From positions 8,844,501 through 8,908,500 of the forward strand of contig NC_134031.1 in NCBI RefSeq assembly GCF_964204645.1: a stretch of DNA of 64,000 nt. The letters are read 5' to 3'. The translations under genes and the position numbers were made by a program. A model generated the notes under the pieces. The model was not told where the DNA came from and did no database searches. It was given only the letters and a program-made list of their open reading frames with translations. The stretch comes from Tubulanus polymorphus. Taxonomy: Eukaryota; Nemertea; Palaeonemertea; Tubulaniformes; Tubulanidae. Shown piece by piece: positions 4,291-60,686 of this stretch. Positions within the stretch are counted from its first letter, which is position 1. Every line of letters begins with the position of its first letter.

Positions 4291-4317
4291 ATCACCATGT
4301 GGGTGCCGTATGGCACC
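4291..4317 (-). repeat. 27-bp palindromic in-frame mini-insert, copy 1 (in gene E)
   Basis: Read on the coding strand the insert is GGTGCC-ATAC-GGCACC followed by CACATGGTGAT. It begins right after AAAAT and ends before ATAG. The P1b copy of gene E (near 21,700) has the uninterrupted AAAATATAG. It adds nine codons without changing the frame. Confidence 0.85.
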
Positions 4318-4660
4318 ATTTTCATTATTATCTTTATTAGTGTTTGCTCCTAATATTTCATTTACAATGTTTGATCCTAATATTTTATTAGCAACGGTTA
4401 AATCTAATTCATCTTTATTAGGCGTTGCTAATAATAAATCTTTATATAATTCCTTACCATTTACTTTTTCATTTGCAACAAACTTTGTAACATATCTAAA
4501 TGGGTGTTCTATAAATTCTTTTAAACCAACGCGTTCTATAACATTATTTATATGTACCCTTATATTCATATGTTTATTCCAATTTGATGGAACGTTTGAA
4601 TATTCACCTTTACAATATCCACAATAATTTCTATTTTCACTAACATTTAATATTATTTCA

Positions 4661-4764
4661 TTATTTGATGTAGAAGGTATTACATTATTAGATGTAGAGG
4701 GTATTACATTATTAGATGTAGAAGGTATTACATTATTAGATGTAGAAGGTATTACATTATTATC
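4661..4764 (-). repeat. 24-bp coding tandem repeat (4 units)
   Basis: Four near-identical 24-bp units encode NNVIPSTS inside gene E; P1b has three units at 21,288-21,366. The difference in unit number between sister copies shows replication slippage after they split. Confidence 0.85.
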
Positions 4765-4985
4765 AATTACATTACTTAAATTATCAACAACACCACTTTT
4801 ATTATTATCGATTTATATTAGTTTAGTTTTATAAATTTTGAAAATAGGATCAAATATCAAAGCTATATTACAAGGTATTACATAATATAAACCATCATTA
4901 TTTTCATGTGTATCGATGTATGGAATATGTTTATATACTTTACCTCCTTCCATTTATTATAAAATTTTTTATTAAAATTAAAATT

Positions 4986-6230
4986 CTAATACATAACACT
5001 ATTTAATTGAGAATTTACAATATTTAATTGCGCGTCAGATATAATATAAATGTGCATTTTAAAATTTTTGATTCCTTTATTCTTTGTCATGAATAATTGT
5101 ATTCCATCTTTAGTGTTTTGTAGTTTTTTTTCCAGAACCATGTAATGAATTATCCTCTGTTGTTCTAAAATCTAACCATAATGCATATTTATTACCGGTA
5201 TAATAATCAATTTGATTAATGTTACAATTTTCAGATGATTTCACTTTTTCATTCATAAAATGTTTTCTAATTTCTGGCCATTGATCAATCATTCTCATTC
5301 CTTGACAAAATATTTTATTTGCTATTCCTTCGATAGTTATTTCTACTTTTGTTATTTCAGAATTATAATAATTATCAACATTTATTGCGCCATTAGTATA
5401 TGTTGCAATGGTAAAAAATATTAATATACCTTTAATAGATCTTCTTGGGAAGTAAATATTCTCATTAATTATTTCATCATTTGCATTAATAGTTACAGTT
5501 TTAAATTTATCAATGTAATCATATAATAATGAAAATCCTTGATTGTATTTAGTTTGAATTATACTTGAAATATTTTCATCAGTTACTGTGTCATATTCTA
5601 AACATATATTCGATAATTTATAACTCATATCTTTAACAACGCTAGATATTACAATTTCATTAACAGGAGCAAATGTTATTTCGAATATAACGTCTTCTTG
5701 AATTGCGTATTTATATAAAGGTGCATTGTTATTTATCAATTCAAAGTCTAATGGAATTTTATGTTTGCTTCCATATATACGTTTTATCAATTTATCTATA
5801 GCATTAGTTAATATTGCATTTTGCGCTTCTGATCTTAATTTATTTTGGTTTTCTGATTGGATTCCTTGAAATATCATATTATTTCTATTTTCTTTAGTTA
5901 ACCATAAATCTTTATAATGCATAAATAAATTATAATCATCTTATGAGAAAACTGTTTCCGGACCAATCTTTATTGTTAATTTTTTAATCAAATATCTTCC
6001 AACATTATCAACAACATAATTATTATTACCGATTACTTTTATATCGGCTGATAAATAAATACTATTTGGAACGTAAAAGTATTTTGTGTTAATCTTGGAA
6101 TTCTAACATATAAAGTTTCATCGGGATTAATATTAGAAGGGTTATGAGTAATTATATGATGTGATCTTTCTGCTTTAATAGCATTAGATATTCTATGATT
6201 CTTAGAAGGATTGATATAACTCCCACTCAT
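4986..6230 (-). pseudogene. Polinton major capsid protein (double jelly-roll, broken)
   Basis: Hexon-type major capsid protein that would form the pseudo-hexagonal shell capsomers. The ATG at 6,230 follows (T)7-N-TAAATAAATG. Family signatures: THNPSNINPDETLYVRIPRL near the N-terminus; YYTGNKYALWLDFRTTEDN and SLHGSGKK near the C-terminus; then IISDAQLNI before the stop. Damage: a frameshift near 6,075, a TAA near 5,943, and a frameshift in an A-run near 5,125. Full length would be about 410 residues, short for the family. It lies between G and E as in P1b. Confidence 0.88.
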
Positions 6231-6251
6231 TTATTTAACAAAAAAATTAAT

Positions 6252-7792: not shown

Positions 7793-7807
7793 TTACATAA
7801 TAAAAGA

Positions 7808-9194
7808 TTAAAATTTAAAATATAATATTCCTCCGATTACAATTCCTATACAAGTTATAGCTAATTTAATATTTTCATGGGATTTATTATCATCATTTAG
7901 TTTAATTATATCATGTTGAATATTATCAGTTCTAATATTTTCTGATGTATTGTAATCTTTTATTTTAGAATCATTATTTTATTTAATATTATTAGTTTTA
8001 GTTTCTGTTGATTGAATATGTTTTTTGTTTTTTTCACCTTCCATTAATTTTGGAGCAGTAATTATCTTTTTATTTATATCATTTAATCCAAATGAATTAT
8101 TTATTGTTGCAGTTTTAATTAGATTATTGTAACCAATTATGTTTCCCATCTTTAATACTATATCATTAGAAATAATTAATAGATTAGGGCCTATACAATA
8201 ATTTAATCTAATATTGATTTATCTAAATAATTTTGATATCTTACAATGTTTTCTGGAATCGATCTATTTTTATCATTATGAATTGAATTTCAAATATTAC
8301 TTTGAATTGTTTCTGTGTATCAAATGATGTATTTAAATTTCCAATTATTGGGGATCTTGTTTCAACTTGCGCACCTAAAATACATATCAAATAAGTTCTA
8401 ATAGATTGATTCATTCTTTCTATACCTGATTTAGTAAAACCTTCACTATTTTCTAAAATAAAATAAACCCAACCATTATTGTTTTCTTGTTTCAAATGAT
8501 CATAAAATTTCGGTAATTTATTGAAATTTAATGTTCTTAAATCCTTTGTTTCTATTTAACCATAACCTAATTTATTGTTATAGATATTATAAAAACTATT
8601 AGATGGTATGGGAAGTGCACAATATTCTGCAATCTTTTTAGGGCAAGGAAGTGATCTTATTGTTCCAATTTTTGTTCTAAAATCAGAATTATTTATATCT
8701 ATATTAAATTCATTACAAATTTTATAAAACTTTGATAAATTAATATTATTATTTAATTCTTTAAAATATCTAGATCCTGGTAAAGCGCACTCTAATTCAT
8801 TTAATATTATTCTGATTTGAAAGTATGTATGAAATCTAAATAAACTTTGAATTAATTTATATTTAGAATTATTCAAATGATCATTCCAACTAATTCCACA
8901 ACCTGTTGTTGCACAATAAACAGCTAAATTTAATTGGTTCTGCCAATACTTCATATTAGATTTTAATAACCATTGTTTTTCATCTTTCAATTTTTTAAAA
9001 TTAATTAAATAGACATGAAATATATTTTCCATCTTTGCATTAAAATTATTAGTTTCAGAAACATAAATTTCTAAATTAGTTAATGAATCTAAAACTTCAT
9101 TTCTATATGTAATATCTTTATTAAAATCTATTGCTGGAATATTATATTTAATTGATTTATTATATTGGAAAGCTTTTGGAAAACTATCTGCCAT
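7808..9194 (-). pseudogene. Polinton conserved protein H (broken)
   Basis: A large conserved Polinton protein of unknown function. Landmarks in order: FQYNKSIKYNIPAIDF near the N-terminus, LAVYCATTGCGISWNDHL, FRFHTYFQIRIILNELECALPG, then GWVYFILENSEGFTKSG, IRTYLICILGAQVETR, FDTQKQFKVIFE, and a C-terminal membrane segment ending ILYFKF. A stop near 8,556 and further breaks near 8,290 and 8,220 split it. Gene position among capsid genes suggests a virion protein (inference). Unlike the P1b copy, it has no 27-bp insert near 7,945. Confidence 0.72.
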
Positions 9195-9210
9195 TTATAT
9201 AATTAAAGAA

Positions 9211-9645: not shown

Positions 9646-9664
9646 TTATTTAGAAAAGAAATTA

Positions 9665-10087
9665 CTAATTAGTAAATTTATAAGCAGCAAATAATACAAT
9701 AACTGTTCCACCTAAAATCCAAATTATTTCATATCTCTTCTGTTCTTTACTTGGGGTATAATAATCTTATAATTTAGGTTTGTATAGATGTAATTTTTCT
9801 TTATTGCTTACCGCGTTATATAAACTCATTGCATCATCAACTGATTGAAAATCTCTATGTGAAATCTTCTGATCATATAATTCCTTGTTAATATAATCCA
9901 TATAGTTTTGCCTCTTTTCTCTATATTCTTCTGCTGCTTTATTGTATTTCTCTAATGCTAAGTTATGTCTTCTTTGCTCTCCTGATGAACTATTTTTATC
10001 AATATGCTTAAATGAATAACCGCCACCAGTAAATGCTAAAGCGTTAACAATTGCCGATCCTATAATAGTTATAATTGCAGAAGCCAT
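9665..10087 (-). pseudogene. Polinton protein J (nonsense mutation)
   Basis: Conserved Polinton protein with an N-terminal hydrophobic segment (SAIVNALAFTGGGYSF), a charged coiled-coil middle (QRRHNLALEKYNKAAEEYREKRQNYMDYINKEL) and a C-terminal membrane segment (about 9,670-9,740). A TAA at 9,767-9,769 replaces the Ser codon found in P1b and P2, removing the C-terminal membrane segment. Function unknown; the NALAFTG motif is typical of the group from memory. Confidence 0.7.
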
Positions 10088-10111
10088 TTATTTAGCAAAA
10101 AAATTACGCAT

Positions 10112-10333
10112 TTATATAGGAGGAATATATTTTTGTTTTTCCAAATAATCAATAGTTAAATTAGATAAAGTAACTGCTAATGTTAATTTTAGAATATCAT
10201 TTATATCAAATCTATCAACATTAACACTTCCCATTTTAAATACTTTTTTAAATACCATTGAATAACCAACAGTTCCAACTGATAGTAAGGCTCCATTATA
10301 TAATCCAGTTATTATCCACTTGTTATCACTCAT
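10112..10333 (-). CDS. Polinton small protein K
   Basis: 73 residues, with two hydrophobic stretches: residues 6-27 (IITGLYNGALLSVGTVGYSMVF) and 45-60 (DILKLTLAVTLSNLTI). It is identical to the P1b copy at 14,646, while the P2 copy differs at a few sites. A small membrane protein is the best description; no family is recognised. Confidence 0.65.
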   Translation of the reverse strand: MSDNKWIITGLYNGALLSVGTVGYSMVFKKVFKMGSVNVDRFDINDILKLTLAVTLSNLTIDYLEKQKYIPPI

Positions 10334-11182
10334 TTATTTATCAAAAAATTACTATCATCAAAATATTTAGTTATCTTAGTGATGATTATTTCAACTTATT
10401 TCATTACTACTTTTATGATTATCATATATTTTGGTTAATATGTTTTTAATATCATCAATAATTCCATCTTAATTCATTATATTCTAAAGGCGTTTTAATT
10501 AAATCAATTACTTTTTCTATATTATAATTTTATTTATTAATCATTGATGCATTATTAAATGATTTACTTTTTATATCAGTAATTACATCATTTGCGTTCC
10601 AAATTCTTTAACATTTTTCAATGGTAAAATGTTTAGTAAACCAGAATTACAAGTTATATCTTTAGTTGCTTCAAATGTTTTTGTAGGATCGATTAAATTG
10701 CAATAAATATTAAAGTGTGTAAAAGGTATTAAGTTGGGTATAGCATCAATATTTGTAAAGGATTTATCTGGAGGAATTCCTAACAGTTAAGCTATTGGTT
10801 TTTCTACCATAAATGCATGTTTTTCAATATCAGCCAACCTTATCTTTATTTTGTTAGAACTCTCACTTTTTAAAAATCTAATATTGAACTCGGAATTATT
10901 ACCTGACTTGTGCCAGGCTTTTCTATTAATTTCTTGTGCCAATGTATCTAAATTATATAACCCCGGTTTTAAATATATATTGGCCCATTCATTTTTATTT
11001 TTATTAAAAATTAAAAAGGCTCAACAGTTTTATTCGATATATTGTAAAATGAGTTACATAAACTTATATTTACTAATTTTAAATCAACACAATTTTTATA
11101 TTCCCTATCTAATTGAACTAGTAAATTATGAGATTTATAATTTGTAAGCCTTCTAGAATCAACAAATATTCTGTATTCTTAA
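10334..11182 (-). pseudogene. Fused remnants of genes X and L (P1a)
   Basis: Reading leftwards: most of minor-capsid candidate X, then, after its GTQ residues, an abrupt jump into the middle of gene L (DVITDIKSKSFNNAS). P1b has exactly the same join (14,385-14,400), while P2 keeps X and L as separate complete genes. The start of X is replaced by polB sequence through a 3-4 bp microhomology near 11,180. Several stops are present. Confidence 0.75.
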
Positions 11183-11345
11183 AATCATCATTATTTGGAT
11201 AGTGTTGCTTTAATATTTTTAATTCATCATCAACTAATGATTTTGATAAGTTATCTAATGAACTATTTAAAAATCTATATGAATCTATAAATCTTAGACA
11301 ACCAAATTGGAATGATATATAATTCTCAGATGTTTTAGCTATTTT
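11183..11345 (-). pseudogene. polB fragment (P1a)
   Basis: About 54 codons of the polymerase (SENYISFQFGCLRFIDSYRF region), matching the minus-strand complement of 11,484-11,650. It forms one arm of the inverted repeat around 11,400. Confidence 0.85.
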
Positions 11346-13394: not shown

Positions 13395-13423
13395 TCAAAT
13401 TTTAATGAAAATATGTATTATAA

Positions 13424-13786: not shown

Positions 13787-14650
13787 TGGTAGAATTAAAA
13801 GAATACAGAATATTTGTTGATTCTAGAAGGCTTACAAATTATAAATCTCATAATTTACTAGTTCAATTAGATAGGGAATATAAAAATTGTGTTGATTTAA
13901 AATAAGTAAATATAAGTTTATGTAACTCATTTTACAATATATCGAATAAAACTGTTGAGCCTTTTTAATTTTTAATAAAAATAAAAATGAATGGGCCTAT
14001 ATATATTTAAAACCGGGGTTATATAATTTAGATACATTGGCACAAGAAATTAATAGAAAAGCCTGGCACAAGTCAGGTAATAATTCCGAGTTCAATATTA
14101 GATTTTTAAAAAGTGAGAGTTCTAACAAAATAAAGATAAGGTTGGCTGATATTGAAAAACATGCATTTATGGTAGAAAAACCAATAGCTTAACTGTTAGG
14201 AATTCCTCCAGATAAATCCTTTACAAATATTGATGCTATACCAAACTTAATACCTTTTACACACTTTTATATTTATTGCAATTTAATCGATCCTACAAAA
14301 ACATTTGAAGCAACTAAAGATATAACTTGTAATTCTGGTTTACTAAACATTTTACCATTGAAAAATGTTAAAGAATTTGGAACGCAAATGATGTAATTAC
14401 TGATATAAAAAGTAAATCATTTAATAATGCATCAATGATTAATAAATAAAATTATAATATAGAAAAAGTAATTGATTTAATTAAAACGCCTTTAGAATAT
14501 AATGAATTAAGATGGAATTATTGATGATATTAAAAACATATTAACCAAAATATATGATAATCATAAAAGTAGTAATGAAATAAGTTGAAATAATCATCAC
14601 TAAGATAACTAAATATTTTGATGATAGTAATTTTTTGATAAATAAATGAG
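13787..14650 (+). pseudogene. Fused X (minor capsid candidate) and L remnants (P1b)
   Basis: X starts at 13,787 (MVELKEYRIFVDSRRL) but meets a TAA about 39 codons in, then continues in pieces. Near 14,390 it jumps into L in the same way as P1a. L residues then run to about 14,650, where K begins. Compare the intact X (48,324) and L (49,092) of P2. Confidence 0.75.
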
Positions 14651-14867
14651 TGATAACAAGTGGATAATAACTGGATTATATAATGGAGCCTTACTATCAG
14701 TTGGAACTGTTGGTTATTCAATGGTATTTAAAAAAGTATTTAAAATGGGAAGTGTTAATGTTGACAGATTTGATATAAATGATATTCTAAAATTAACATT
14801 AGCAGTTACTTTATCTAATTTAACTATTGATTATTTAGAAAAACAAAAATATATTCCTCCCATATAA
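14646..14867 (+). CDS. Polinton small protein K
   Basis: 73-residue frame with two hydrophobic stretches, identical in sequence to the P1a copy. It starts in GGATAAATAAATGAG-type context after a T-run. Function unknown. Confidence 0.65.
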   Translation: MSDNKWIITGLYNGALLSVGTVGYSMVFKKVFKMGSVNVDRFDINDILKLTLAVTLSNLTIDYLEKQKYIPPI

Positions 14868-14891
14868 ATGCGTAATTATTTTACTAAATAA

Positions 14892-15315
14892 ATGGCTTCT
14901 GCAGTAATAACTATTATAGGATCGGCAATTGTTAACGCTTTAGCATTTACTGGTGGTGGATATTTATTTAAACATATTGATAAAAATAGATCATTAACAG
15001 AACAAAAAAGACATAACTTAGCATAAGAGAAATACAATAAAGCTGCAGAAGAATATAGAGAAAAAGAGACAAAACTATATGGATTATATTAACAAGGAAT
15101 TATATGATCAGAAGATTTCACATAGAGATTTTCAATCAGTTGATGATGCAATGAGTTTATATAACGCGGTAACAAATAAAGAAAAATTACATCTATACAA
15201 ACCTGAATCATCAGATTATTATACCCCAAGTAAAGAACAACAGAAATATGAAATAATATGGATTTTAGGTGGAACTGTTATTGTTATATTTGTAGCGTAT
15301 AGATTTAGTAATTAG
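14892..15315 (+). pseudogene. Polinton protein J (P1b, broken)
   Basis: The N-terminal hydrophobic part (NALAFTGGGYLF) is followed by a stop near 15,025 and a one-base insertion near 15,065 (AAAAAGAGAC). The C-terminal part is open, with EQQKYEIIWILGGTVIVIFVAY as a membrane segment. The three copies of J in the window are broken in different places, except P2, which is intact. Confidence 0.72.
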
Positions 15316-15780: not shown

Positions 15781-17019
15781 ATGGTAGATAGTTTTCCAAA
15801 AGCTTTCCAATATAATAAATCAATTAAATATAATATTCCTGCAATAGATTTTAATAAAGATATTACATATAGAAATGAAGTTTTAAATTCATTAATTGAT
15901 TTATATATTTATGTTACTGAAACTAATTATTTTAATGTTAAGATGGAAAATATATTTTATGTGTATACAATTAATTTTAAAAATTTAAATGAGGCAAAAC
16001 AATGGTTATTAAAATCTAATATGAAATATTGGCAGAACCAATTAAATTTTGCTGTCTATTGCGCAACAACAGGATGTGGAATAAGTTGGAATGATCATTT
16101 GAATAAACCAAGTTTACCATTGATGTTATCACTTTTTAGATTTCATACTTATTTTCAAATAAAATTAATTTTAGATGAATTAGAATGTCCTTTACCAGGT
16201 TCAAAATATTTTAAAGAATTGAATAATAATATTAAGTTTTATGAAATATGTAATGAATTTAATATTAATTCAAATAATGATTTTAGAGCAAAAATTGGAA
16301 CAATGGGTGGATTAGGAATATTATATACTAAAGAATTTGGAAAAATAATGACAAATTCAGATATGAGAACACTAAATTGGATTGAATTACCAAAATATTA
16401 TGATAATATACAACAACAAAATAATAATGGTTGGGTTTATTTCATTTTAGAAAATAGTGAAGGTTTTACTAAAGCTGGTAAACAAAGAATAAATGAATCA
16501 ATTAGAACTTATTTAATTTGTATTTTAGGTGCGCAAGTTGAAACAAGATCACTAATAGTTGGAAATGATAACACTTCATTCGATGCGCAGAAACAATTTA
16601 AAGTATTATTTGAAGATTCAATTCATAATGATAGAAATAGATCGATTCCAGAAAACATTGTAAGATATCAAAATTATTTAGATAAATCACATATTAGACT
16701 AAATTATTGTATAGGCCCTAATCTATTAATTATTTCTAATGATTTAGTATTAAAGATGGGAAATATAATTGGTTATAATAATCTAATTAAAACTGCAACT
16801 AAAACTAAGAATATTAAATTAAATAATGATTCTAAAATAAAAGATTACAATACATCAGAAAATGGTGCCGTACGGCACCCACACGGTGATATTAAAACTG
16901 ATAATATTCAACATGATATAATTAAAACTGATAATGATAATAAATCCCATGAAAATGCTAAATTAGCTTTAACTTGTATAGGAATTGTTATAGGAGGAAT
17001 ATTATATTTTAAATTTTAA
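15781..17019 (+). CDS. Polinton conserved protein H (longest open copy)
   Basis: 412 residues without a stop. Landmarks: FQYNKSIKYNIPAIDF; QNQLNFAVYCATTGCGISWNDHL (about residues 82-104); FRFHTYFQIKLILDELECPLPG; GWVYFILENSEGFTKAG; IRTYLICILGAQVETR; FDAQKQFKVLFEDSI; IVRYQNYL; and a C-terminal single membrane segment (CIGIVIGGILYFKF). Relative to P2 it lacks about 20 residues in the middle and a short stretch before the tail, and it carries the 27-bp insert at 16,864. A virion protein of unknown role (inference from gene position). Confidence 0.75.
   Translation: MVDSFPKAFQYNKSIKYNIPAIDFNKDITYRNEVLNSLIDLYIYVTETNYFNVKMENIFYVYTINFKNLNEAKQWLLKSNMKYWQNQLNFAVYCATTGCGISWNDHLNKPSLPLMLSLFRFHTYFQIKLILDELECPLPGSKYFKELNNNIKFYEICNEFNINSNNDFRAKIGTMGGLGILYTKEFGKIMTNSDMRTLNWIELPKYYDNIQQQNNNGWVYFILENSEGFTKAGKQRINESIRTYLICILGAQVETRSLIVGNDNTSFDAQKQFKVLFEDSIHNDRNRSIPENIVRYQNYLDKSHIRLNYCIGPNLLIISNDLVLKMGNIIGYNNLIKTATKTKNIKLNNDSKIKDYNTSENGAVRHPHGDIKTDNIQHDIIKTDNDNKSHENAKLALTCIGIVIGGILYFKF
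16864..16890 (+). repeat. 27-bp palindromic in-frame mini-insert, copy 2 (in gene H)
   Basis: GGTGCCGTACGGCACC is a perfect 16-bp palindrome, followed by CACACGGTGAT. It follows AAAAT and precedes ATTAAAA. P1a (near 7,945, minus strand) and P2 (near 51,840) have the same gene region without it. It adds residues NGAVRHPHG in frame. Confidence 0.9.
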
Positions 17020-22895: not shown

Positions 22896-23979
22896 TTATT
22901 CTTTTAATTTTACTAGATAAAATCCATTCATTAAATTTGTCATCATACCCTTTATATTTCACCAAAGAATACTTTTTTCCTTTAAGAATTTTTGTTTTCA
23001 ATACTTTTTCTATTTTATATTCTATTTCATCTGGATTTGGTACAAGTGATAATTCTTGTTCATAGAAATAACCTAATATTTCTTCATCTTTTAAATCTTC
23101 TAGTTTATAAACAAATGGTTTAGTTAATATTATCTTTTTAATCTTGAGTATTTCTCCAGTAAAATTAGGGGTATAACCTTTGTAAAAGGTTTTTCTATAT
23201 TTAGATATTCTAACGTGTTGTCCTATTTTAAATTTAGGTTCGCCGAAATCATGTGTAACAAACGCTCCATATAAATTATTCCAAACTATTTCTGAATTAT
23301 CTTCTTTTCTAGCTTGAATAGGTTTCATATTTATAGAACTATGTTTAGAATTATTATAACCTTTCACTAAATCATCTAACACATCGATATATTTATATGT
23401 TTCATTAGCAGTAAAATATTTCCACATTCTAGTTTTCAATGTTCTATTAAATCTTTCTATAATAGATGCTTTTTTATCTGAATGTGTTGAAAAATAATCT
23501 ACATCGTTATCAGATAATAGTTTTTTAAAATGTTTGTTATAAAATTCCTTACCTTCATCAAATTGTATCTTATCTGGAATAGCTTCTTTAAATATTGATT
23601 TAAAAGCATTTGTCACTTCTATACCAGTTTTACTTTTGATTGGTATACTCCATGCGTATCTACTGAATATATCTATAACATTCAGTATTCAGAAATATCC
23701 TTTGTTGTATTCCTCTAAGTTCTTCATGTCAATTAAATCTGCTTGCCATTGTTGATCGATATATGAAACCATAACTTTTCTTGTTAAATAAGTTTTATCC
23801 ATTTTCTTGTGGATTTGATATGTTGGTTGATTTTGTAACCATGATTTTAATTCACTATATTTTATATTACCATTTTCCTTATCAGATTTAATTTTATCCC
23901 ATAATTCTGAAACGTAAGAATATGATACTTCACTTTCTGGGTTATAATATAACTCTCTTAAATATTGCTATTTTTCCAT
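22888..23979 (-). pseudogene. Integrase with chromodomain (P1b, broken)
   Basis: Same architecture as 2,195-3,286. A TAG occurs at codon 4, and a TGA near 23,691 replaces the Trp in the catalytic core (GYF-stop-ILNVIDIFSRY). The second Asp, the Glu (IIERFNRTLK) and the chromodomain (KYSLVKYKGYDDKFNEW) are open. It lacks the 27-bp insert that the P2 right-arm copy carries. Confidence 0.9.
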
Positions 23980-24354: not shown

Positions 24355-24949
24355 TTATTTTAGTTGATTTTTGTTCTGGTTCATTTTCTGTTTCACCGTT
24401 TGGTTGTAGTACATCTGTTTCGTTCTTACCTGATTTATATTCCATAGGCTTGATATTCGAAAATGTTATGACACCAGTAGAAATTAATGTCATAACAGAG
24501 CCTAATTGGAATGAAGCATATCCAACCCATTTTTGTAATTCAGTCATAACTAAATAGTCATTTTTCAAATCACTATATAATTTATTTTCGTCATCAATTG
24601 GTATTAACTGGTTACATAACTTAGAATAAAATTTGACAATACCATCTGAAATAGAATCATTTATTCGGGCTAATCTTGCCTCTTCATAAATCTTAAAATA
24701 TTTTATTACTTTATCTGGTTTCATAGCATCTAATTCTTGAAAAGTAATTATCTTAGTTAAAAACTCTTTAGATTTCCCGCCAGCAATTAGTAATTCAAGA
24801 TGGTGTTTACAATATAAGTAGTATTCATAATCTATATTGTTATTAACTTGAATAGAATTAGAAACAACTGGATCCTTATTATCACTTATACCCAAATCAT
24901 CTAATGTTTTTTCAATATTAATACTATTCTTATTAGATTTCTTTGACAT
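24347..24949 (-). CDS. Polinton protein B
   Basis: An intact 200-residue copy with the same helical middle and hydrophobic segment (GYASFQLGSVMTLISTGVITF) as P1a. The start lies in TCTAATATAAATGTC. Unknown function. Confidence 0.7.
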   Translation of the reverse strand: MSKKSNKNSINIEKTLDDLGISDNKDPVVSNSIQVNNNIDYEYYLYCKHHLELLIAGGKSKEFLTKIITFQELDAMKPDKVIKYFKIYEEARLARINDSISDGIVKFYSKLCNQLIPIDDENKLYSDLKNDYLVMTELQKWVGYASFQLGSVMTLISTGVITFSNIKPMEYKSGKNETDVLQPNGETENEPEQKSTKINE

Positions 24950-39918: not shown

Positions 39919-39944
39919 TTTTCAACACTTTTATTTGTGTGAAC

Positions 39945-40716
39945 CTATAAATATTGGTTTATTAAATTTCATTGACGTTCTTTTTAATTTTACTGCTGTT
40001 AAATAATCTTCAAATCTTTTATTTCCTAAGTGTCTAGGACTTGATTGTAAATGTCTCAATCGTTCAGAATTATTTACTAATTCAATATCATTTCTATTTC
40101 TAATATTTTCACGTTTTCCCATAAAAACTATTATTCATTAATTAAAAAAAATCATTTTCAAAATCTGTTTTAGAAATTGTTCTCTGTTGAGTATTGAAAT
40201 CTATATATTTTTCTAACCACTTCGATTGATTAAATTCAATATATCTATGTACTTTCTTTAATTTCATTCCTTGTTTTAGATAAAATTTTAACATTCTATA
40301 ATGAACGATATAATTATATTTATTATTTTGTGTTAATATCAATTTTTCTGTAAAAACATGATCTTTCGGTTTTATTTTCTTCTGGTATTCACTTAGATAA
40401 CTATCATCTACGGCTAAATGTTCTGGGCAATAAGGTAAGTTTCTTGTTTTAAACTTTATATTTTCAGGATTTTTTAAATCAACTACAAAGAAATAACCAA
40501 TTGGAGCATCATCTTTTATACCCATGATTGCACTTTCCCAATCAGTTTTATCATCATTTTTAACTTCTGTTAATATACAATTTTTATATGGTTGGTGTTG
40601 CATCATTGCCCAACCATATAAATTATTGGCGTCAATGTATAGTAATTTATATTCATCATTTGCTTTAAAATACCTATCGCCCATAACACAACTAATTCCA
40701 CCTCTAATTGATTTTT
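39945..40716 (-). pseudogene. polB: polB central fragment (Pc or related lineage)
   Basis: Contains motif A (YKLLYIDANNLYGWAMMQHQP) and NPENIKFKTRNLPYCPEH, then the region before motif B. After a break near 40,140 come IRNRNDIELVNN and RTSMKFNKPIFIG. Both ends are abrupt (SIRGGIS at 40,716 and FIG at 39,945). It covers the part missing from the polymerase at 35,496-37,510 and could come from the same element split by the BEL insertion (inference). Confidence 0.85.
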
Positions 40717-45500: not shown

Positions 45501-47923
45501 AAATCTGATTATCCAGAACTAATTAAAAGTGAATATTATCATTATAGAAATGAAAATGTTTTCAATCATTTTTGTGACTTATTAATCGAGTATGAAATAA
45601 GATTTAGTAAATTATTGAATACAAATATAGAAATTATAATGACAGAAGAAGATGAAGAAGAATTTGAGTTTGCAGATAAATGTTATTATTGTGAAAAGAT
45701 ATTTAATTATAAAGATAAAAAGTAAGAGACCATGATCATTTGAATGGAAAGTTTAGAGGCGCTGCGCATGAGAATTGTAACTTACAAGCTAAGAAAATCA
45801 ATTTTGTACCAGTTATAGTTCATAATCTATCAGGATATGATGCACATTTATTCATCAAACAGTTATGCCATAAAATAGAAGAAATCAATAATGAAATAGA
45901 AATATTAAATTCAAATAGATCAAAAGATAAAATACCAACTTATAAATTTAGAATGTTAGCTAAAACATCTGAGAATTATATATCATTCCACTTTGGTTGC
46001 CTAAGATTTATAGATTCATATAGATTTTTAAATAGTTCATTAGATAACTTATCAAAATCATTAGTTGATGATGAATTAAAGATATTAAAAGAATATTACC
46101 CAAATAATGATGATTTTCAATTAATGAGATATAAAGGCGCAATTCCATATTCTTTCTATAAAAATCATAATGATTTTAACATAACTGAATTATTGAAAGA
46201 ACAATTCTATGATGAATTAAAAAATGAATATGTCAAAGATGAAGTATATAATAGAACATTGAATATTTGGAATCATTTTGGAATGAAAAATCATGGGCAA
46301 TTAGTAGATATATATTTAAAATCAGATGTATTATTATTAACCGATATATTCGAAAGGTTTAGAGATGTAAACCTAAAATATTTTAACATTGATCCTTGTC
46401 ATTGTTATTCATCACCAGGTTTAACATGGGATTGTGGATTAAAATTTACAGATATAAAAATGGATTTGTTAACAAATATAGATCAATTACTATTATTTGA
46501 AAAATCTATAAGAGGAGGAGTTTCAGGTGTATTAGGTGATAGGTATTTCAATGTAAATGATAACCCTGGATATAAGTTATTATATATAGATGCAAATAAT
46601 TTGTATGGTTGGGCAATGATGGAACCACAACCTTATGGAGTATTTGAATCAACTGAAGTTTTACAGAATGAAAATAATGATAAATTTGATTGGAAGAAAA
46701 GAATCCTAGATATTGCAGATAATTCAGATACTGGTTACTTCTTTGTTGTAGATTTAGAATATCCTGAAGATAAAAAATTTAAATCTAGAAATCTAGCTTA
46801 CTGCCCCGAACATAAAACCGTAACTCATGAAGAATTATCAAATTACCAAAAAAGAATTAAACCCGAAAATCATATTCATACAGAAAAGTTAATGGTAACT
46901 CAGGAAGATAAATATAATTATGTAGTACATTATAGAATGTTAAAGTTTTATTTGAATCAAGGAATGATCCTAAAAAAAGTACATAGATATATTTCATTTT
47001 GACAATCTAAGTGGTTAGAAAAATATATAGATTTTAACACCAAACAGAGAACTAAAGCTAAAACTGATTTCGAAAAAGATTTCTTCAAGTTGATGAACAA
47101 TGCATTCTATGGTAAGACTTGTTAAAATATTAGAAATAGAAATGATATTGAGTTAGTTAGTAATGGTAAAAGAATTAGACATTTACAATCATATCCTAAG
47201 TTTTTAGGTAACAGAATATTTGATGAAAATTTAGCTGCAGTTAAGATGAGAAGAACATCAATGAAATTTAATAAACCAATCTATGATGGATATTCAGTTT
47301 TAGAATTATCAAAATTACTAATGTATGAATTCTATTATAATATATTACAACCACTTTTTGGAGAAAAACATATAGAAATCTTATATTTTGATACCGATTC
47401 TTACATATTAAAGATAAAAACTGATAACATAACTGATGATTTAAAAACATTAAAACATCATTTTGATTTCAGTAATTATCCAAAAAATCATGAATTGTTT
47501 AGCAATGATAATAAAAAAGTTCCCGGTAAATTCAAAGATGAATTAGGTGGTGAAGAAATGATTGAATTCATCGGTATTAGATCTAAAATGTATTCATATA
47601 AAACTAAAGAACATGAAGCTAAAAAGTTAAAAGGAATAACTAAAAGTGTAGTAGAAAAGAATATTCATTTCAAAGATTACATCAATTGTATATTCAATGA
47701 AGAAGTTAGAAAACATAAGATGAGATGTATAAGATCTGAAGATCATGAAATGTTTATTGAAGAAATTGAAAAGATAAGTCTAAACCCATTTGATGATAAA
47801 AGATATATTTTAGATGATGGAATTCATACAGTTGCTTATGGTTGTAATTTAGATGAATACTTAAAATTTAAAAGAGAAGAAACAAAAGAGAACGAGATAA
47901 TGAAAAGAATTCTAACGTGTTAA
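42572..47923 (+). pseudogene. polB: Protein-primed type B DNA polymerase of P2 (near full length, broken)
   Basis: N-terminal exon-like part (42,572-43,271): two C2H2 fingers (YYCPTCNINIDKSQKARH, YKCDTCNQSFSDKIYYNEH). After a 1.3-kb insertion: EEKYFEGSGLIFDEIIF, SSYIKLPFKTNAVINVQNED, CFLWAIISCLHP, finger CRKCLHRFSNESALLNH. The exonuclease follows (FVIYGDFESLN, VHNLSGYDAHLF), then motifs A (LLYIDANNLYGWAMM), B ([12 protein letters not shown]) and C (LYFDTDSYILK). Frameshifts near 45,118 and 45,723; a TGA at 47,000 and a TAA near 47,122. No intein at DTDS. Treating the finger ORF as the polB N-terminus is inference. Confidence 0.85.
43275..44565. mobile_element. DNA-transposon-like insertion in polB
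   Basis: Higher-GC DNA separating the finger part of polB from the rest. Near the ends are inverted copies of AAGCGCACAGC (43,301-43,311 and 44,547-44,557). Just inside the right end is CTCGCGCCTTCGGCGCTCGC, a hairpin. No transposase frame is seen, so it is non-autonomous. Borders are approximate. Confidence 0.5.
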
Positions 47924-50575: not shown

Positions 50576-51971
50576 ATGGCAGATAGTTTTCCAAAAGCTT
50601 TCCAATATAATAAATCAATTAAATGTAATATTCCAGCAATAGATTTTAATAAAGATATTTCATATAGAAATGAAGTTTTAAATTCATTAATTGATTTATA
50701 TATTTATGTTACTGAAAGTAATAATTTTCATGTAAAGATGGAAAATATATTCAATGTTTATGAAATTAATTTTGAAAAAGAATTAAGTAAAGCAAAATTA
50801 TGGATGTTAAAATCAAATATGCAATTCTGGCAAAACCAATTAAATTTGCTGTTTATTGCGCAACAACAGGATGCGGAATAAGTTGGAATGATCCTTTAAA
50901 TAAACCAAGTTTACCATTGATATTATCATTCTTTAGATTTCATACATACTTTCAAATAATATTAATATTAAATGAATTAGAGTGTCCTTTACCAGGGTCT
51001 AGATATTTTAAAGAATTAGATAATAACGTTGATTTATCAAAGTATTATAAAATATGTAATGAATTTAATATAGATATAAATAATTCTGATTTTAGATCAA
51101 AGATGGGAACAATTACAGGGGGAGATTTATCTAAAGTAGAGAAAGCTTTGGATGCAATGAATAATTCATCATTTCCAATCGGAGGTTTTTATGTCCCTTA
51201 TACTAAAGAATATAGAAAAGAAATAAAAAATACAAACTCAAAAACGTTTAAATGGAATGAAATACCAAAATATTATATTTATATCAAACAACAACAAAAT
51301 AATGATGGTTGGATTAATTTTATTTTAGAAAATAGTGAAGGTTTTACTAAAGCTGGAATACAAAGAATAAATCAATCAATTAGAACTTATTTGATATTCT
51401 AGGTGCGCAAGTTGAAACAAGATCCCCAATAATTGGAAATTTAAATACATCATTTGATACACAAAAACAATTCAAAGTATTATTTGAAGATTCAATTCAT
51501 AATGATAAAAATAGATCGAAACCGGAAAACATTGCAAGATATCAAAATTATTTAGATAAATCACATATCAGATTAAATTATTGTATAGGCCCTAATCTAT
51601 TAATTATTTCTAATGATTTAGTATTAAAGATGGGAAACATAATTGGTTATAATAATCTAATTAAAACTGCAACAATAAATAATTCATTTGGATTGAATGA
51701 TATAAATAAAAAGATTATTACTGCTCCAAAATTAATGGAAGGTGAAAAAAATAAAAAACACATTCAATCAACAGAAACTAAAACTAAGAATATTAAATTG
51801 GATAATGATTCCAAAATAAAAGATTACAATATATCAGAAGATATAAAAACTGATAATATTCACCATGATATAATTAAAATAAATGATGATAATAAATCCC
51901 ATGAAAATACTAAATTGGCTATAACTTGTATAGGAATTGTAATCGGAGGAATATTATATTTTAAATTTTAA
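50576..51971 (+). pseudogene. Polinton conserved protein H (P2, broken)
   Basis: The same landmarks as the P1b copy (CATTGCGISWND, FRFHTYFQIILILNELECPLPG, GWINFILENSEGFTKAG, FDTQKQFKVLFEDSI). A frameshift lies near 50,860 and another near 51,400. It has a longer middle (GGDLSKVEKALDAMNN) and a longer tail (ENKKHIQST region) than P1b, so P1b H is internally shortened. No 27-bp insert near 51,840. Confidence 0.75.
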
Positions 51972-52649: not shown

Positions 52650-52858
52650 CTGATTACTTGAATTAGTCTCTTTGTCTCTGGATTGTATATATATCTCATA
52701 ATTTCTGTTTTATCTCATTATTCCTGAAGATGACTATTAGGATATAGTCGAAACGTTGAAATATACTACTATCTCGAAGTTTCATTTTCGGACTTTTTAT
52801 TATCATTGTGGGATTCTCTCCTCATCGCGTCAACACGGATATTGTGTTCTACCTATCG
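52650..52858 (+). repeat. Penelope left terminal direct repeat (pLTR)
   Basis: Begins CTGATTACTTGAATTAGTCT and ends TTGTGTTCTACCTATCG. Carries CTGAAGAT, a 6-bp stem (GACTAT/ATAGTC) and GAAACG, a layout like the hammerhead ribozymes known from such repeats. Confidence 0.9.
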
Positions 52859-52863
52859 TGATC

Positions 52864-55262
52864 ATGCTACCCACGGATCGAAATATCGTATTAAAATTCT
52901 TCTTCTTCACGTTCCCGTACCTCGTCGCTAGCTTCCGAAATTATGAGAAATGCTATATCAAATCCAGGACTGCCAAAAGTAAAGTCAAGTTCCTTCAGGA
53001 GTGTTATGCCGAAAAAGTGGTTCCGCGATCACTTTCTTGGATTTGGAAATACGACTCCAGCTCTGCGTTTCCACCCGAAGCTAACAAGCAACTCAAATTC
53101 GCTATAGATCGTGCTAAGGAAGACTGTAACTATCAGTTCTACAAATTCCGTCAATCTCAAAATTATTTGAAGTCACACGTACCGGACCTATTCCTCTGGA
53201 AATCGCTCTCCACTATTGTTCAAGGCTCTGGAAAATATCATCAGCACAGAAAGTCCGTGGATCTTACCAACCAACTGAATAAACTCATTGATTCCAGCCC
53301 TTGGACTAGATTTAGCAACACCGAAAACATAGTAAATTTGTCTTCAACCACGTTATCTTCTACTCAGTGTCAACTTCTCGGCTACGGTTTGAATTTTTCT
53401 CTTCCTCATCAAGATAAATATGTTTTAGACTTTGTCACCCAATTGGAATATCGCAAATCATCTCCAAACAGTTTGGACTATAACTTTATATTCATGAATC
53501 TACAGGCTATATGCGATCAACTCAACAGGAACCTTTTTGAATATCTACCTCGTCGATTTCGGCTCGCCCTCCAAGAACTACGGAAGTTAAAGACTATTAA
53601 AATATCTAAGGCTGATAAAGGTGGCAAGATTGTGATTTTAGATCTGGATAATTATAATGTTAAAATGCAATCTCTCTTGGATAATCCTGGTGTTTATAAG
53701 AAACTTAAATCGAATCCTCTTCCTCGTATGCAAGCTAATTTCAACAGAAGTCTTTCGGATATTATTAAACGTTTCCCCTCCGCTAAAGAAACTCTGAATA
53801 AGTTCCATTCACGTCTTCCCTCTTTACCATATATCTATGGATTGCCTAAAATTCATAAAGATAATGTTCCACTGCGCCCTATAGTCTCCAATTGTAATTC
53901 TCCTACATACCGGTTATCTAAATTTCTCGCGAAACAGTTATCTCCGGTGCTCGGTTCGTTCTCTCCGTCGCACCTTCGCCATAATCAACACTTACTTGAA
54001 CGTATTAAGAATATTATCCCTGGCAACGACAAATTTATATCATTTGATGTTACTTCCCTTTTTACCAATGTTCCTCTTGGACCTACTCTTGATTTCTTAA
54101 AACGCAGATTACCATCACTTAACATTAACTTCGGCATTCCTACGGATTGTATCATCGACCTTATCTCTATTTGTACGACGGACTCCTTTTTTGAATTCAA
54201 CAATTGTTTTTACGAACAGACATTCGGTATCGCTATGGGAAATCCTCTTAGTCCTATTCTAGCTAATTTATTCCTAGAACATGTTGAATCTCAAATATTG
54301 CCTCTTTACACTGATATTCACCCTAAAATCTGGCTCAGATATGTTGACGATGTTCTGGCTTTGGTTCCCTTTGACTTCAATGTTGATAACTTTCTTATAT
54401 ATTTAAACTCCCTTTACCCGTCTCTGGCTTTTACGTATGAATGGGAATCTAATAGTAAAATACCTTTTCTGGATGTTTTGATTTTTAACTGTGGATCCTT
54501 TTTGAAATTCGCGGTTTATAGGAAACCTACCAACGCTGAATCCTACCTCCATTACTTCTCTTTTACTTCTCCGGATATTAAACTCGGTTTAGCTCAAGGA
54601 TTATTTCTTCGCGCTTTGAGAATTTGCGACCCCTCATTTCTACCCGATGAAATTCACCATATTAACCAATCTCTCAAAAAACTTGCCTACCCCGATTTCC
54701 TATTGAAAAAAGCTCTACTTAAAGCTCGTACTACGCATTTTAGAAATAACAACCTTAGAACTCCTACGTTGGCTACCGATAAACAGCCAATCATTGTACC
54801 GTATGTACCTTTCCTCGAGAATTCTAAAGTTTCTCTTCGGTCACTAAATAAACAACTTATCTTTAAATACAATAATAAACTTAGTAACATATTGATTAAC
54901 AACAAACCGAAAACCGAATCCCTAAACTGTGGAATTTATAAAATACCTTGTAAAGTTTGCGACAAAGTATATATAGGAGAAACAGGTATCTTAATCAACG
55001 CATAAAAGAGCATAAATTAGATGTAAAAAACTTTAAACCTGAAAGCGGAGTTGCTAGTCATGTTTTTCAGACTTCACACAATTTTGATTTTGCTAATGCT
55101 GAATTAGTTTACCCTTGCAGCGATAAAACTAGAAGACATATTTTGGAATCTGCATTAATTATGGAAAATTCGAACAACGTTGTAAACCTTAACAATGGTT
55201 TTTCACCCCATAATAAACTTATATCAAAATTCCTCTGTAAACTGGTTAAACTCAACACTTGA
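52864..55262 (+). pseudogene. Penelope-like reverse transcriptase with GIY-YIG endonuclease (one frameshift)
   Basis: RT blocks: KADKGGKIVILDLDNYN, LPYIYGLPKIHKDNVPLRPI, FISFDVTSLFTNVPL (first catalytic Asp), FGIAMGNPLSPILANLFLEH, WLRYVDDVLAL (catalytic YVDD). The endonuclease starts CGIYKIPCKVCDKVYIGET. A single frameshift near 54,985 then moves to LNQRIKEHKLDVKNF and HILESALIMENSNNVVNLN, ending at 55,262. The first ATG after the left repeat is at 52,864. Apart from the shift it looks complete (about 800 residues). Confidence 0.92.
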
Positions 55263-55713: not shown

Positions 55714-55809
55714 AGATTTAATTTTATTCCATAATTCTGAAACGTTAGAATATGATACTTCACTCTCTGGGTTATGATATAACTCTCTTAAATATTGTTC
55801 TTTTTTCAT
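55714..55809 (-). pseudogene. Integrase N-terminal stump (P2 first right arm)
   Basis: Only about the first 30 codons remain (MKKEQYLRELYHNPE and NVSELWNKIKS region), cut by the Penelope element. Confidence 0.85.
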
Positions 55810-55815
55810 CTTCTT

Positions 55816-56771: not shown

Positions 56772-57018
56772 TTATATTAGAGAAATTTAATAAGAAAAAA
56801 AATATAAGTATTATAAAATGATACCAGTATCTCTTTAGATTAATACTAGCTTAGTTAAAGGTAAAGAATTTTAGTATTAGTTATTGTTTTTTTAGTATTT
56901 TTTATTTGTGATATAAAGTATTCTTTTTTGAAAAGAAAATATTAAAAATATAATAGAATTCACTAGCTAGTTGAAGTTATTGTTTTTTAAATACTTTTTA
57001 TTTAAAATCTATTATTCT

Positions 57019-58845: not shown

Positions 58846-59063
58846 TCCTTGATATCAAATTCCTCAACGTATTGTTCATTATTTGGATCATTATTCCATA
58901 ATTCAATAAATTTCTTTGCCTTTGTTAACTGTTCTGAATATAACTGTAAATATTCTAGTTTCAATTTATTCTCTAAATGTGTTTTAGTTTTATTGTGTCT
59001 TGCTTTTTGGGATTTATCTATATTGATATTACATGTTGGACAGTAGTACTTATTTGCTTCCAT
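58812..59063 (-). CDS. Chimeric ORF: polB finger start fused to HNH tail
   Basis: 83 residues. The first 38 (MEANKYYCPTCNINIDKSQKA to KLKLEY) equal the start of the P2 polB finger region at 42,572. The rest (LTKAKKFIELWNNDPNNEQY to EEFDIKDP) is the C-terminus of the HNH protein. The join lies at the shared word AAACTAGA. Upstream (right) lies a terminal repeat, as for the normal polB start. Possibly never expressed; it is best seen as a recombination product. Confidence 0.7.
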   Translation of the reverse strand: MEANKYYCPTCNINIDKSQKARHNKTKTHLENKLKLEYLQLYSEQLTKAKKFIELWNNDPNNEQYVEEFDIKDPMFILEPDSI

Positions 59064-59069
59064 TTTAAT

Positions 59070-59536
59070 ACTAAATTTTTTATTAAAATTGATTTTAGAA
59101 GTTATTCATTTATATTTTATTCATATATATGAATATTTTAAGAGTAATAGGGAATATCTTGTTTCAGGTTGAAGGTTGAATGGTCGAGTTCATTAATAAC
59201 AAATATTAAAAGTAATTTAAAACTATAATATATTTTCATAACCGTGTGTATTTCAGTTGAATATTATTATTATTTGAATATATTTGATTATATGAATTTG
59301 TGTATTGTAAATAAATCAATTGGTCGCGGAGCGGAGCGGTAGCGAAGTGGAGCGACCAATTGATTTAATACAATACGCTTTTTAAATTATTGATATCTTT
59401 GAATAAATATTTAGTTTTAATATTAAATGCACACGGTTATGAAAATATATTATAGTTTTAAATTACTTTTAATGTTTCGTTTTTAATGAACTCGACCGTT
59501 CGACCTTAGGCCTGAAACAAGATATTCCCTATTACT
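59070..59536. repeat. Internal Polinton terminal repeat with variant fold-back ends
   Basis: Fold-back unit 59,143-59,536. Both outer ends read AGTAATAGGGAATATCTTG (one as reverse complement), instead of AGTAATAGGGGTAATGGGC at the outer P2 ends. The centre is a 20-bp inverted repeat around GGTCGC...GCGACC with the loop GGAGCGGAGCGGTAGCGAAG. It ends exactly where truncated ATPase sequence begins. Confidence 0.85.
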
Positions 59537-59577
59537 AACATATTATGCGGTTCGAATATGAATAAATCTTTATTCAT
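59537..59577 (-). pseudogene. ATPase N-terminal stump (P2 second arm)
   Basis: The first 13-14 codons of the packaging ATPase, cut by the internal terminal repeat. Confidence 0.8.
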
Positions 59578-60686
59578 TTATTCTTCTAATTTTTAGATAA
59601 AATCCATTCATTAAATTTATCATCATATCCTTTATATTTCACCAAAGAATACTTTTTTCCTTTAAGAGTTTTTGTTTTCAATACTTTTTCTATTTTGTAT
59701 TCTATTTCATCTGGGTTTGGTACAAGTGATAATTCTTGTTCATAGAAATAACCTAATATTTCTTCATCTTTTAGATCTTCTAGTTTATAAACAAATGGTT
59801 TAGTTAATATTATCTTTTTAATGTTGAATATTTCTTCAGTAAAATTTGGAGTATAACCTTTATAAAATGTTTTTCTATATTTAGATATTCTTACGTGTTG
59901 TCTTATTTTAAATTTAGGTTCTCCGAAATCATGTGTAACAAATGCTCCATATAAATTATTCCAAACTATATCCGAATTATCTTCTTTTCTAGCTTGTATA
60001 GGTTTCATATTTATAGAACTATGTTTAGAATTATTATAACCTTTCACTAAATCATCTAATACATCGATATATTTATATGTTTCATTAGCAGTAAAATATT
60101 TCCACATTCTAGTTTTCAATGTTTTATTAAACCTTTCTATAATAGATGCTTTTTTATCTGAGTGTGTTGAAAAATATTCTACATCGTTATCAGATAATAG
60201 TTTTTTTAAATGTTTGTTATAAAATTCCTTACCTTCATCAAATTGTATCTTATCTGGAATAGCTTCTTTAAATATAGATTTAAAAGCATTTGTTACTTCT
60301 ATTCCAGTTTTATTTTTGATTGGAATTGACCATGCGTATCGACTGAATATGTCTATAACATTTAATATCCAGAAATATCCTTTGTTGTATTCTTCTAAGT
60401 TCTTCATGTCAATTAAATCTGCTTGCCATTGTTGATCGATATATGAAACCATAACCTTTCTTGTTAAATAAGTTTTATCCATTTTCTAGTGGATTTGATA
60501 TGTTGGTTGATTTTGTAACCATGATTTCAATTCACTATATTTTATATCACCGTGTGGGTGCCATACGGCACCATTACCATTTTCATTATCAGATTTAATT
60601 TTACCCCATAATTCTGTAACGTTAGAATATGATACTTCACTTTCTGGGTTGTAATATAAATCTCTTAAATATTGTTCTTTTTTCAT
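59570..60686 (-). pseudogene. Integrase with chromodomain (P2 second arm, broken)
   Basis: Same domains as at 2,195. A TAG at about 60,483 replaces the Lys after YQIH, and a small change near 59,590 shifts the last residues. The catalytic Asp, Asp, Glu motifs and chromodomain are open (59,586-60,482). It carries the 27-bp insert in the N-terminal part. Confidence 0.9.
60546..60572 (-). repeat. 27-bp palindromic in-frame mini-insert, copy 3 (in integrase)
   Basis: Coding strand GGTGCC-GTAT-GGCACC then CACACGGTGAT, placed between GGTAAT and ATAAAA. The P1a (near 2,306) and P1b (near 23,872) integrases have uninterrupted GGTAATATAAAA. It adds GAVWHPHGD in frame. Confidence 0.9.

What the first reader, a model, noticed from the sequence alone, without database searches (positions are those of the whole stretch)
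4291..60572. A 27-bp palindromic mini-element inserted in frame in three unrelated Polinton genes
The same 27 bp (GGTGCC-4 nt-GGCACC plus CACA-Y-GGTGAT) sits in gene E of P1a (4291-4317), gene H of P1b (16864-16890) and the integrase of P2 (60546-60572). In each case the sister copies have the exact empty site: 21,700 for E; 7,945 and 51,840 for H; 2,306 and 23,872 for integrase. All three lie at AAT|AT with an apparent AT duplication, in the same orientation and reading frame. Each adds a NGAVRHPHGD-like peptide in a polar linker. P1a and P1b are sister copies, and each has a copy the other lacks, so the insertions look independent. This resembles in principle the Rickettsia palindromic elements that insert inside genes, but is much smaller; I know of no such element in Polintons.
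Basis: seen in the sequence. Interest (0 to 1): 0.88.

Follow-up and report, generated by a model that had tools for sequence, protein, structure and literature searches.

The report
Tiny palindromic insert inside Polinton genes
A 27-letter hairpin-forming DNA unit has inserted itself at several places, always in the same reading frame where it lies in genes, into Polintons (virus-like transposons) of a eukaryotic genome, resembling the palindromic inserts known from Rickettsia genes and yeast mitochondria.

Summary
The window's three copies are exact, and sister copies lack them. The genome holds 210 copies of the 27-mer pattern and 506 with up to 3 mismatches (reversed control 0). By their flanks all sit in Polintons, at nine positions; a tenth holds a 29-bp variant. 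Eight positions are in five genes (integrase two, H two, C two, E, B) and share strand and phase; two are intergenic. The typical left flank is RAT at all ten; seven targets are AT|AT. None of 240 listed related integrase and H proteins (best 83% identical) has the peptide, so the inserts look derived. At the integrase, filled and empty copies interleave on a tree (8 changes, at least 6 forced). The unit is a perfect 16-bp palindrome plus a predicted weak second hairpin; its common variants are CpG changes in the loops. At site E the loop is ATAC (19) or GTAT (15), never GTAC or ATAT, as a flipped hairpin would give. Best reading: a hairpin-defined mini-element spreading inside Polintons, like mitochondrial GC clusters and Rickettsia palindromic elements. 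What moves it is not shown.

The parts
4291..4317 (-). Element copy, site E (loop ATAC), reads GAIRHPHGD
16864..16890 (+). Element copy, site H1 (loop GTAC), reads GAVRHPHGD
60546..60572 (-). Element copy, integrase site INTb (loop GTAT), reads GAVWHPHGD, preceded by a GGTAAT hexamer
4078..4812 (-). Gene E of P1a (stop-to-stop open frame), carrying the site E copy
   Evidence: no Pfam match to its 163-aa ATG part
15781..17019 (+). Gene H of P1b; the insert lies in a polar stretch before a C-terminal hydrophobic tail
   Evidence: homologues, tails of seven read; no Pfam match
59586..60692 (-). Integrase of P2 (upstream end approximate), carrying INTb; broken by an in-frame stop after the insert
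2195..3286 (+). Sister integrase (rve) without the 27-mer, holding a GGTAAT hexamer
   Evidence: Pfam PF00665
21693..21714 (+). Empty site E
7922..7954 (-). Empty sites H1 and H2
51825..51857 (+). Empty sites H1 and H2
23839..23892 (-). Integrase site without the 27-mer (GGTAAT hexamer present)
1934..1990 (+). Empty site K in gene C (filled in L003, L098 and, as a variant, L047)
61902..61922 (-). Left flank of the empty intergenic site I (filled in 18 typed copies elsewhere)
1762..1782 (+). Putative decayed copy at site B in gene B (21 nt like the element's last 21); longer form in L040 and L041
   Evidence: alignment by eye
24392..24412 (-). Putative decayed copy at site B in a sister Polinton (16 of 21 bases as in the element, by eye)

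Best explanation
The 27-mer is a real insertion unit: 25 bp (GGTGCC-RTAY-GGCACC-CACAY-GGTG) plus AT, inserted typically at RAT|AT. One strand is predicted to fold into two adjacent hairpins whose outer edges coincide with the ends of the insert. It has entered Polinton DNA at about ten positions and is then inherited, lost and reshuffled as Polintons multiply and recombine. Shown: discrete precise ends, hundreds of copies, ten positions, sister sites without it, AT at the left edge, AT preference at the right edge, interleaved presence and absence at the integrase, and partly deleted and tandem derivatives. Inferred: that a hairpin on single-stranded DNA is the moving form, copied into new AT|AT sites while Polintons replicate by their own protein-primed polymerase (strand-displacement replication is recalled knowledge of Polintons). 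That would confine the unit to Polintons without a transposase of its own. The shared frame is best read as a filter: a polar nine-residue peptide (GAVRHPHGD) is tolerated in linkers, helped by the target's tendency to fall between codons. My estimates: insertion unit 0.9; hairpin-defined moving form 0.6; replication-coupled copying rather than a transposase 0.4.
For: Copies: 318 perfect palindromes against 2 for the reversed control; 210 of the 27-mer pattern, control 0; 506 with up to 3 mismatches, control 0. Edges: 0 copies of the form GGTGCCRTAYGGCACCCACAYG have a base other than T just upstream; one search found 5 with a base other than A before a T, of which 4 are INTb copies ending GGTGGT and the fifth (L037) is the other strand of a mutated copy; 4 have a base other than A downstream. 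Sites: 137 unique copies typed (E 34, H1 25, INTb 24, INTa 22, I 18, H2 6, K 3 including one the script left unlabelled, B 2, C1 2, H1/H2 fusion 1); the tenth, I2, is a 29-bp variant with a 6-nt loop in L232 and L237. AT|AT at 7 of 10 sites against 13.9% of AT dinucleotides in the Polinton parts of the window, P 8e-5. Frame: 8 of 8 coding positions are phase 0 on the coding strand; 33% of stop-free RATAT options are, giving 1e-4 for eight or 1e-3 for six. Turnover: filled and empty integrase rows need 8 changes, at least 6 forced by supported branches (24 filled, 12 empty). Polarity: 0 of 240 listed related proteins hold the peptide; five H relatives at 66-71% identity run through H1 and H2 without an insert. 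Hairpins. Loop at E: ATAC 19, GTAT 15, GTAC 0, ATAT 0, interleaved on a 27-row tree, 7 changes, at least 3 forced.
Against: No source gene or mobilising enzyme was found, and none was searched for. Loop-biased change is confounded: the three variable positions are also CpG sites, copies at one site share ancestry, and pattern searches favoured intact stems. Predicted folding is modest (DNA z -1.2 to -2.2; RNA z -1.3 to -2.6). The flip pattern appears clearly only at E; INTa has one ATAC, INTb and I none among typed copies. Part of the frame bias may come from the target motif itself: 18 of 26 GAWRATAT sites are phase 0 on the coding strand. INTa and INTb may be one event; B and C1 rest on two loci that may be one duplicated Polinton. 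B, C1 and I2 do not have the AT|AT target. The trees cannot separate new insertion from recombination between Polinton copies, and the labels are somewhat clustered (24-30 of 500 shuffles as low, 48-57). Of 24 integrase sites without the element, 10 hold a GGTGAT-like hexamer in place of GAAAAT rather than in addition to it, which fits simple substitution as well as a footprint.
Confidence: 0.6

Rival explanations
1. Recombination and gene conversion only: a few ancient insertions, one per site, are shuffled among Polinton copies; the unit is not active.
For: Typed copies crowd at a few shared sites; filled and empty copies are interleaved as shuffling would give; H1/H2 fusion and tandem forms show recombination.
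Against: Does not explain how ten positions got the same precise unit; listed relatives of two Polinton proteins lack it.
Confidence: 0.3
2. Ultra-short MITE or rolling-circle (Helitron or HUH-type) element moved in trans by a transposase. Read in reverse and shifted by one base, the unit starts with TC after an A, and ends with a hairpin and an A before a T.
For: AT target and possible 2-bp duplication; terminal hairpin.
Against: No CTRR end (recalled Helitron feature; by eye); TC and A|T are partly forced by the AT flanks; 27 bp is far below MITE sizes that I recall; seen only in Polintons among 137 typed copies.
Confidence: 0.15
3. Selected peptide: GAVRHPHGD is a functional protein tag (for instance a binding or processing site) added to several Polinton proteins.
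For: All eight coding positions share frame and strand; the common change CAC to CAT is silent.
Against: 18 typed copies and the I2 variant are intergenic; the two other common changes alter the peptide (V to I, R to W); several host copies are broken genes.
Confidence: 0.08
4. Translational bypass element as reported for mitochondrial GC clusters of Magnusiomyces: the ribosome skips the insert.
For: Similar architecture; bypass of coding GC clusters is described in PMC8811140 (passage read).
Against: Undamaged coding copies are 27 bp and open in frame, so no bypass is needed; the 29-bp variant was seen only in non-coding DNA.
Confidence: 0.03

Closest known systems
Yeast mitochondrial GC clusters (for example GC42), including in-frame inserts in var1
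   Same: Short GC-rich palindromic unit in AT-rich DNA, short repeat at the edges, patchy presence and absence, more change in loops than stems, partial units, in-frame inserts in the var1 gene (PMC4478555 passages and section 11; PMC8811140 passages).
   Different: Mitochondrial, 42 bp for GC42, AG or TAG repeats, most often intergenic. Here: nuclear-type contigs and Polintons, 27 bp, AT, mostly coding among typed copies.
Rickettsia palindromic elements
   Same: Palindromic repeats fused in frame within protein genes, also intergenic (PMC2229807 passages).
   Different: 105-146 bp with long stems, bacterial, reported in 19 reading frames. Here 27 bp, seen only in Polintons; sequence relation not tested.
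Double-hairpin elements and translational-bypass inserts of fungal mitochondria
   Same: Two adjacent hairpins in a very short unit (recalled; search listing only).
   Different: Organellar; bypass inserts need not be multiples of three (recalled).
Pithovirus M1/M2 repeats and Pandoravirus submariner MITEs
   Same: Palindromic repeats that colonise DNA virus genomes (PMC10664404 passages).
   Different: About 140 bp for the Pithovirus repeats, in non-coding regions, putative TA duplication; here tiny, largely coding, AT|AT.

Membership tests
Yeast mitochondrial GC clusters | Short GC-rich palindrome in AT-rich DNA | tested here: met
   18 of 27 bases G or C (by hand); window 28%; perfect 16-bp palindrome in 318 places, some with a changed loop
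Yeast mitochondrial GC clusters | Terminal AG or TAG repeat read as target duplication | tested here: not met
   Here AT, and ambiguous because the target is ATAT
Yeast mitochondrial GC clusters | Mitochondrial location | tested here: not met
   Copies lie mostly on contigs of 11-32 Mb, in a window with other retroelements
Rickettsia palindromic elements | In-frame insertion in protein genes | tested here: met
   8 of 8 coding positions phase 0
Rickettsia palindromic elements | Length 105-146 bp with long stem | tested here: not met
   27 bp, 6-bp stem; family values from PMC2229807 passages
Double-hairpin elements | Two adjacent hairpins | tested here: inconclusive
   Predicted, second stem only 3 bp
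Helitron | 5' TC, 3' hairpin and CTRR, A|T target | tested here: not met
   No CTRR end seen by eye in the copies; end rules recalled
MITE of a cut-and-paste transposon | Terminal inverted repeats, fixed target duplication and a related transposase | tested here: inconclusive
   Palindrome covers only 16 of 27 bp; transposase not searched
Polinton (the host element) | Family B DNA polymerase and retroviral-type integrase | tested here: met
   PF03175 at 45740-46999; PF00665 at 2195-3283

The most novel reading that the evidence does not exclude
A new class of minimal mobile DNA: a 25-27-bp double hairpin with no gene, living only inside a virus-like transposon and copied into new AT|AT sites by the host transposon's own replication, in a form that leaves reading frames open. 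It would be a parasite of a parasite, and the smallest protein-coding mobile insert known to me.
Probability: 0.4. Interest if true: 0.88.

Novelty: new variant of a known kind. Interest (0 to 1): 0.73.

Why it matters
Short palindromic inserts in genes are known from Rickettsia and from organelles, but how such inserts move is unsettled. Here is a case in large nuclear-type contigs with hundreds of copies, sister sites without it and a target rule, in a transposon that brings its own polymerase and integrase. It makes the question 'can a bare hairpin move?' testable by comparing Polinton copies within and between individuals, and it shows a way for virus-like elements to gain short peptides in linkers.

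Tried and rejected
Assembly or adaptor artefact: judged unlikely, because copies lie on many contigs with coherent diverged flanks and empty sisters; reads were not available.

Chance: rejected (controls).

Presence elsewhere: the 25-base pattern gave 0 in IMG/VR contigs and 0 in GTDB genome contigs; a pattern for the peptide gave 0 in IMG/VR. Near relatives of this genome may be left out there, and exact patterns miss variants. A search of the phage collection with the 27-mer did not run (query too short).

Peptide constraint against hairpin constraint from CpG decay: tried, not decisive. In the listed rows (about 100 of 223), single stem changes are rare (C6T in 2, G11A in 1) and 2 rows carry both changes, which keeps the stem; both lie at site I with like flanks (L231, L232), so probably one event. 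But copies are not independent, and within one loop C21T against G22A is as lopsided (21 to 0 of 27 copies) as stem against loop.

Co-conversion of flanks between sites: no shared flank beyond RAT|AT seen by eye; no formal test.

Footprint reading of the integrase hexamer: kept as a possibility only; see evidence against.

Identity of the host organism was not pursued.

Literature: searches showed no listed paper on such an insert in Polintons; only open-licence PMC papers are covered, listings show at most 20 papers, and apart from passages of four papers I saw titles and abstract starts.
Full report
What was checked. The three 27-mers are in the window as described, and the palindrome is far above chance there (3 found, 0.07 expected). 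The window lies in a 268-Mb assembly of 77 contigs, taken to be a eukaryote. The host elements are Polintons by their family B DNA polymerase (PF03175) and rve integrase (PF00665). Sister copies hold exact empty sites for E and H, and sites without the 27-mer for the integrase.

How many and where. Genome-wide there are 318 perfect palindromes (reversed control 2), 210 copies of the 27-mer pattern (101 + 109), and 506 with up to three mismatches (256 + 250, control 0). By flank sequence all of them fall at known Polinton positions: E 34, H1 25, INTb 24, INTa 22, intergenic I 18, H2 6, K 3 (two plus one variant, L047, that the script left unlabelled), B 2, C1 2, and one H1/H2 fusion. A tenth position, I2, holds a 29-bp variant with a 6-nt loop, 18 bp upstream of I, in L232 and L237; L081 and L083 seem to keep pieces of it. 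Sites B and C1 rest on two loci, L040 and L041, alike in the stretches shown and 25 kb apart on one contig, perhaps one duplicated Polinton. The B copy has four changes from the element; in window Polintons the same place has 21 nt of which 16 (in one copy) match the element's last 21 (by eye). I read that as a decayed copy; a native sequence overwritten by an element in L040 is the alternative. The sample leans to contigs C1-C5 and to intact copies.

The edges. No copy of the form GGTGCCRTAYGGCACCCACAYG has anything but T directly upstream. One search lists 5 matches without A before that T: 4 are INTb copies whose left flank ends GGTGGT, and one (L037) is the other strand of a mutated copy. 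Four lack A downstream. Across the ten positions the typical left flank is RAT in all, and the right flank AT in seven (not B, C1, I2), against 13.9% of AT dinucleotides followed by AT in the Polinton parts of the window (P 8e-5). Because the typical target is ATAT, a 25-bp unit with an AT duplication and a 27-bp unit without one look the same.

Frame and strand. All eight coding positions take the element in phase 0 on the coding strand, reading GAVRHPHGD or its variants. In 29 open frames that I chose from the window, RATAT sites are phase 0 on the coding strand in 111 of 428 cases; leaving out options that create a stop, about 33%. Eight of eight has probability about 1e-4, six of six about 1e-3. 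Part of this may be target choice: of 26 GAWRATAT sites, 18 are phase 0 on the coding strand. At site I the element has no long frame (in L021 it lies between two convergent frames), and the I2 variant is 29 bp, not a multiple of three. I read the frame as a filter rather than as the purpose of the element.

Occupancy without bias towards intact elements. I searched with flanks only. At E, 13 of 37 copies that still hold the site carry the element or a damaged form (two are 17 bp); two further loci lack the site. At the integrase, 15 of 39. At H, 2 of 38 plus one remnant (L208). Places are, letters, counts by eye. These are the copies nearest the window's own, 40 scored of 387 (E), 1030 (H) and 785 (integrase) candidates, so they are not genome-wide rates.

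Gain, loss and footprints. On a tree of integrase pieces (24 filled, 12 empty) presence needs 8 changes, at least 6 of them forced by supported branches; an empty window copy and a filled copy (L069) are 99% identical. Shuffled labels average 10.4 changes, and 24 of 500 shuffles are as low, so presence is only weakly tied to kinship. Filled rows came mostly from element searches and empty rows from flank searches, and recombination is not excluded. Of 24 sampled integrase sites without the element, 12 carry a hexamer like the element's last six bases (GGTGAT, GGTAAT, GGTGGT, GGCAAT, GGTAAC) in addition to GAAAAT, 10 carry such a hexamer or an AGTGAT or AGCAAT form in place of GAAAAT, and 2 (L163, L166) have none (by eye). 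Deletion between the element's two GGTG repeats would leave just GGTGAT, and close relatives of the integrase have a linker as short as the form in L163 (P0002, P0003, P0006), so the extra hexamer looks derived. The in-place forms fit substitution as well. This is inference.

Hairpins and decay. One strand is predicted to fold as two adjacent hairpins whose bases meet the ends of the unit (-5.9 kcal/mol as DNA for the 27-mer; z -1.2 to -2.2 over four sequences; RNA). The three common variant positions (7, 10, 21) are CpG sites in the predicted loops, so the variants look like deamination of one sequence. In 27 full-length flank-sampled copies, loops (7 positions) hold 41 changes, stems (18 positions) 17 and the final AT 6. 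Shared ancestry makes these counts non-independent. At E the loop is ATAC in 19 and GTAT in 15 copies, never GTAC or ATAT, always with T at position 21; the states interleave on a 27-row tree (7 changes, at least 3 forced; 48-57 of 500 shuffles as low). Turning over the 16-bp palindrome converts one state to the other in a single step. Two separate insertions at E, or two lineages from a lost GTAC parent, would also do. Other sites do not show such pairing: INTa has GTAT 10, GTAC 11, ATAC 1; I has GTAT 9, GTAC 9.

Outside this genome. None of 120 listed integrase relatives (best 83% identical, of 2673 found) and none of 120 listed H relatives (best 71%, of 241 found) contains the peptide by a motif search; the five closest H relatives have an uninterrupted linker at H1 and H2. 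IMG/VR and GTDB contigs hold no exact match. So the inserts look derived, and so far known only here.

What it works like. Yeast mitochondrial GC clusters match in much of the behaviour: short GC-rich palindromes in AT-rich DNA, short repeats at the edges, patchy presence, partial units, loop-biased change (PMC4478555, passages and section 11), and in-frame inserts in var1 (PMC8811140, passages). Rickettsia palindromic elements match in frame behaviour but are 105-146 bp (PMC2229807, passages). It is a member of neither: compartment and edge rule fail for the first, length for the second. I therefore call it a new variant of a known kind. The mechanism of GC clusters is itself unsettled in the passages read.

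Mechanism. I favour a hairpin on single-stranded DNA copied or joined at AT|AT during Polinton replication, because the ends of the unit coincide with the predicted hairpins, no flank was seen to travel with it, and it is confined to Polintons in all typed copies. No step of this has been observed. A transposase acting in trans, and shuffling of old insertions, remain open.

Noticed in passing
60486-60488: The P2 integrase copy has an in-frame stop 28 codons after the start of the insert, so this insert sits in a broken copy.
   Followed up: partly
G000 C1-C4: Listed copies lie mostly in the central part of the large contigs (for example C1 12.8-20.3 of 32 Mb, C2 8.0-17.2 of 32 Mb), as if Polintons were concentrated around centromeres.
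   Followed up: no
L077, L026: Gene H copies with two elements 42 bp apart: L077 looks like a tandem duplication, L026 like separate H1 and H2 insertions.
   Followed up: partly
52756-55005: Long open frame with a reverse transcriptase domain (RVT_1) beside a Polinton; looks like a Penelope-type element (type recalled).
   Followed up: partly
38240-40006: Retroelement pieces on both strands (H2C2 integrase, rve, DUF1758), BEL/Pao-like by recall.
   Followed up: partly
9915-11185 and 13794-15064: A 1.27-kb inverted repeat, 98% complementary, with 2.6 kb between the arms, inside the Polinton cluster.
   Followed up: no
L237 (G000:C12:10801163-10801797), L232: Variant element of 29 bp with a 6-nt loop at a second intergenic position 18 bp upstream of site I.
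   Followed up: partly
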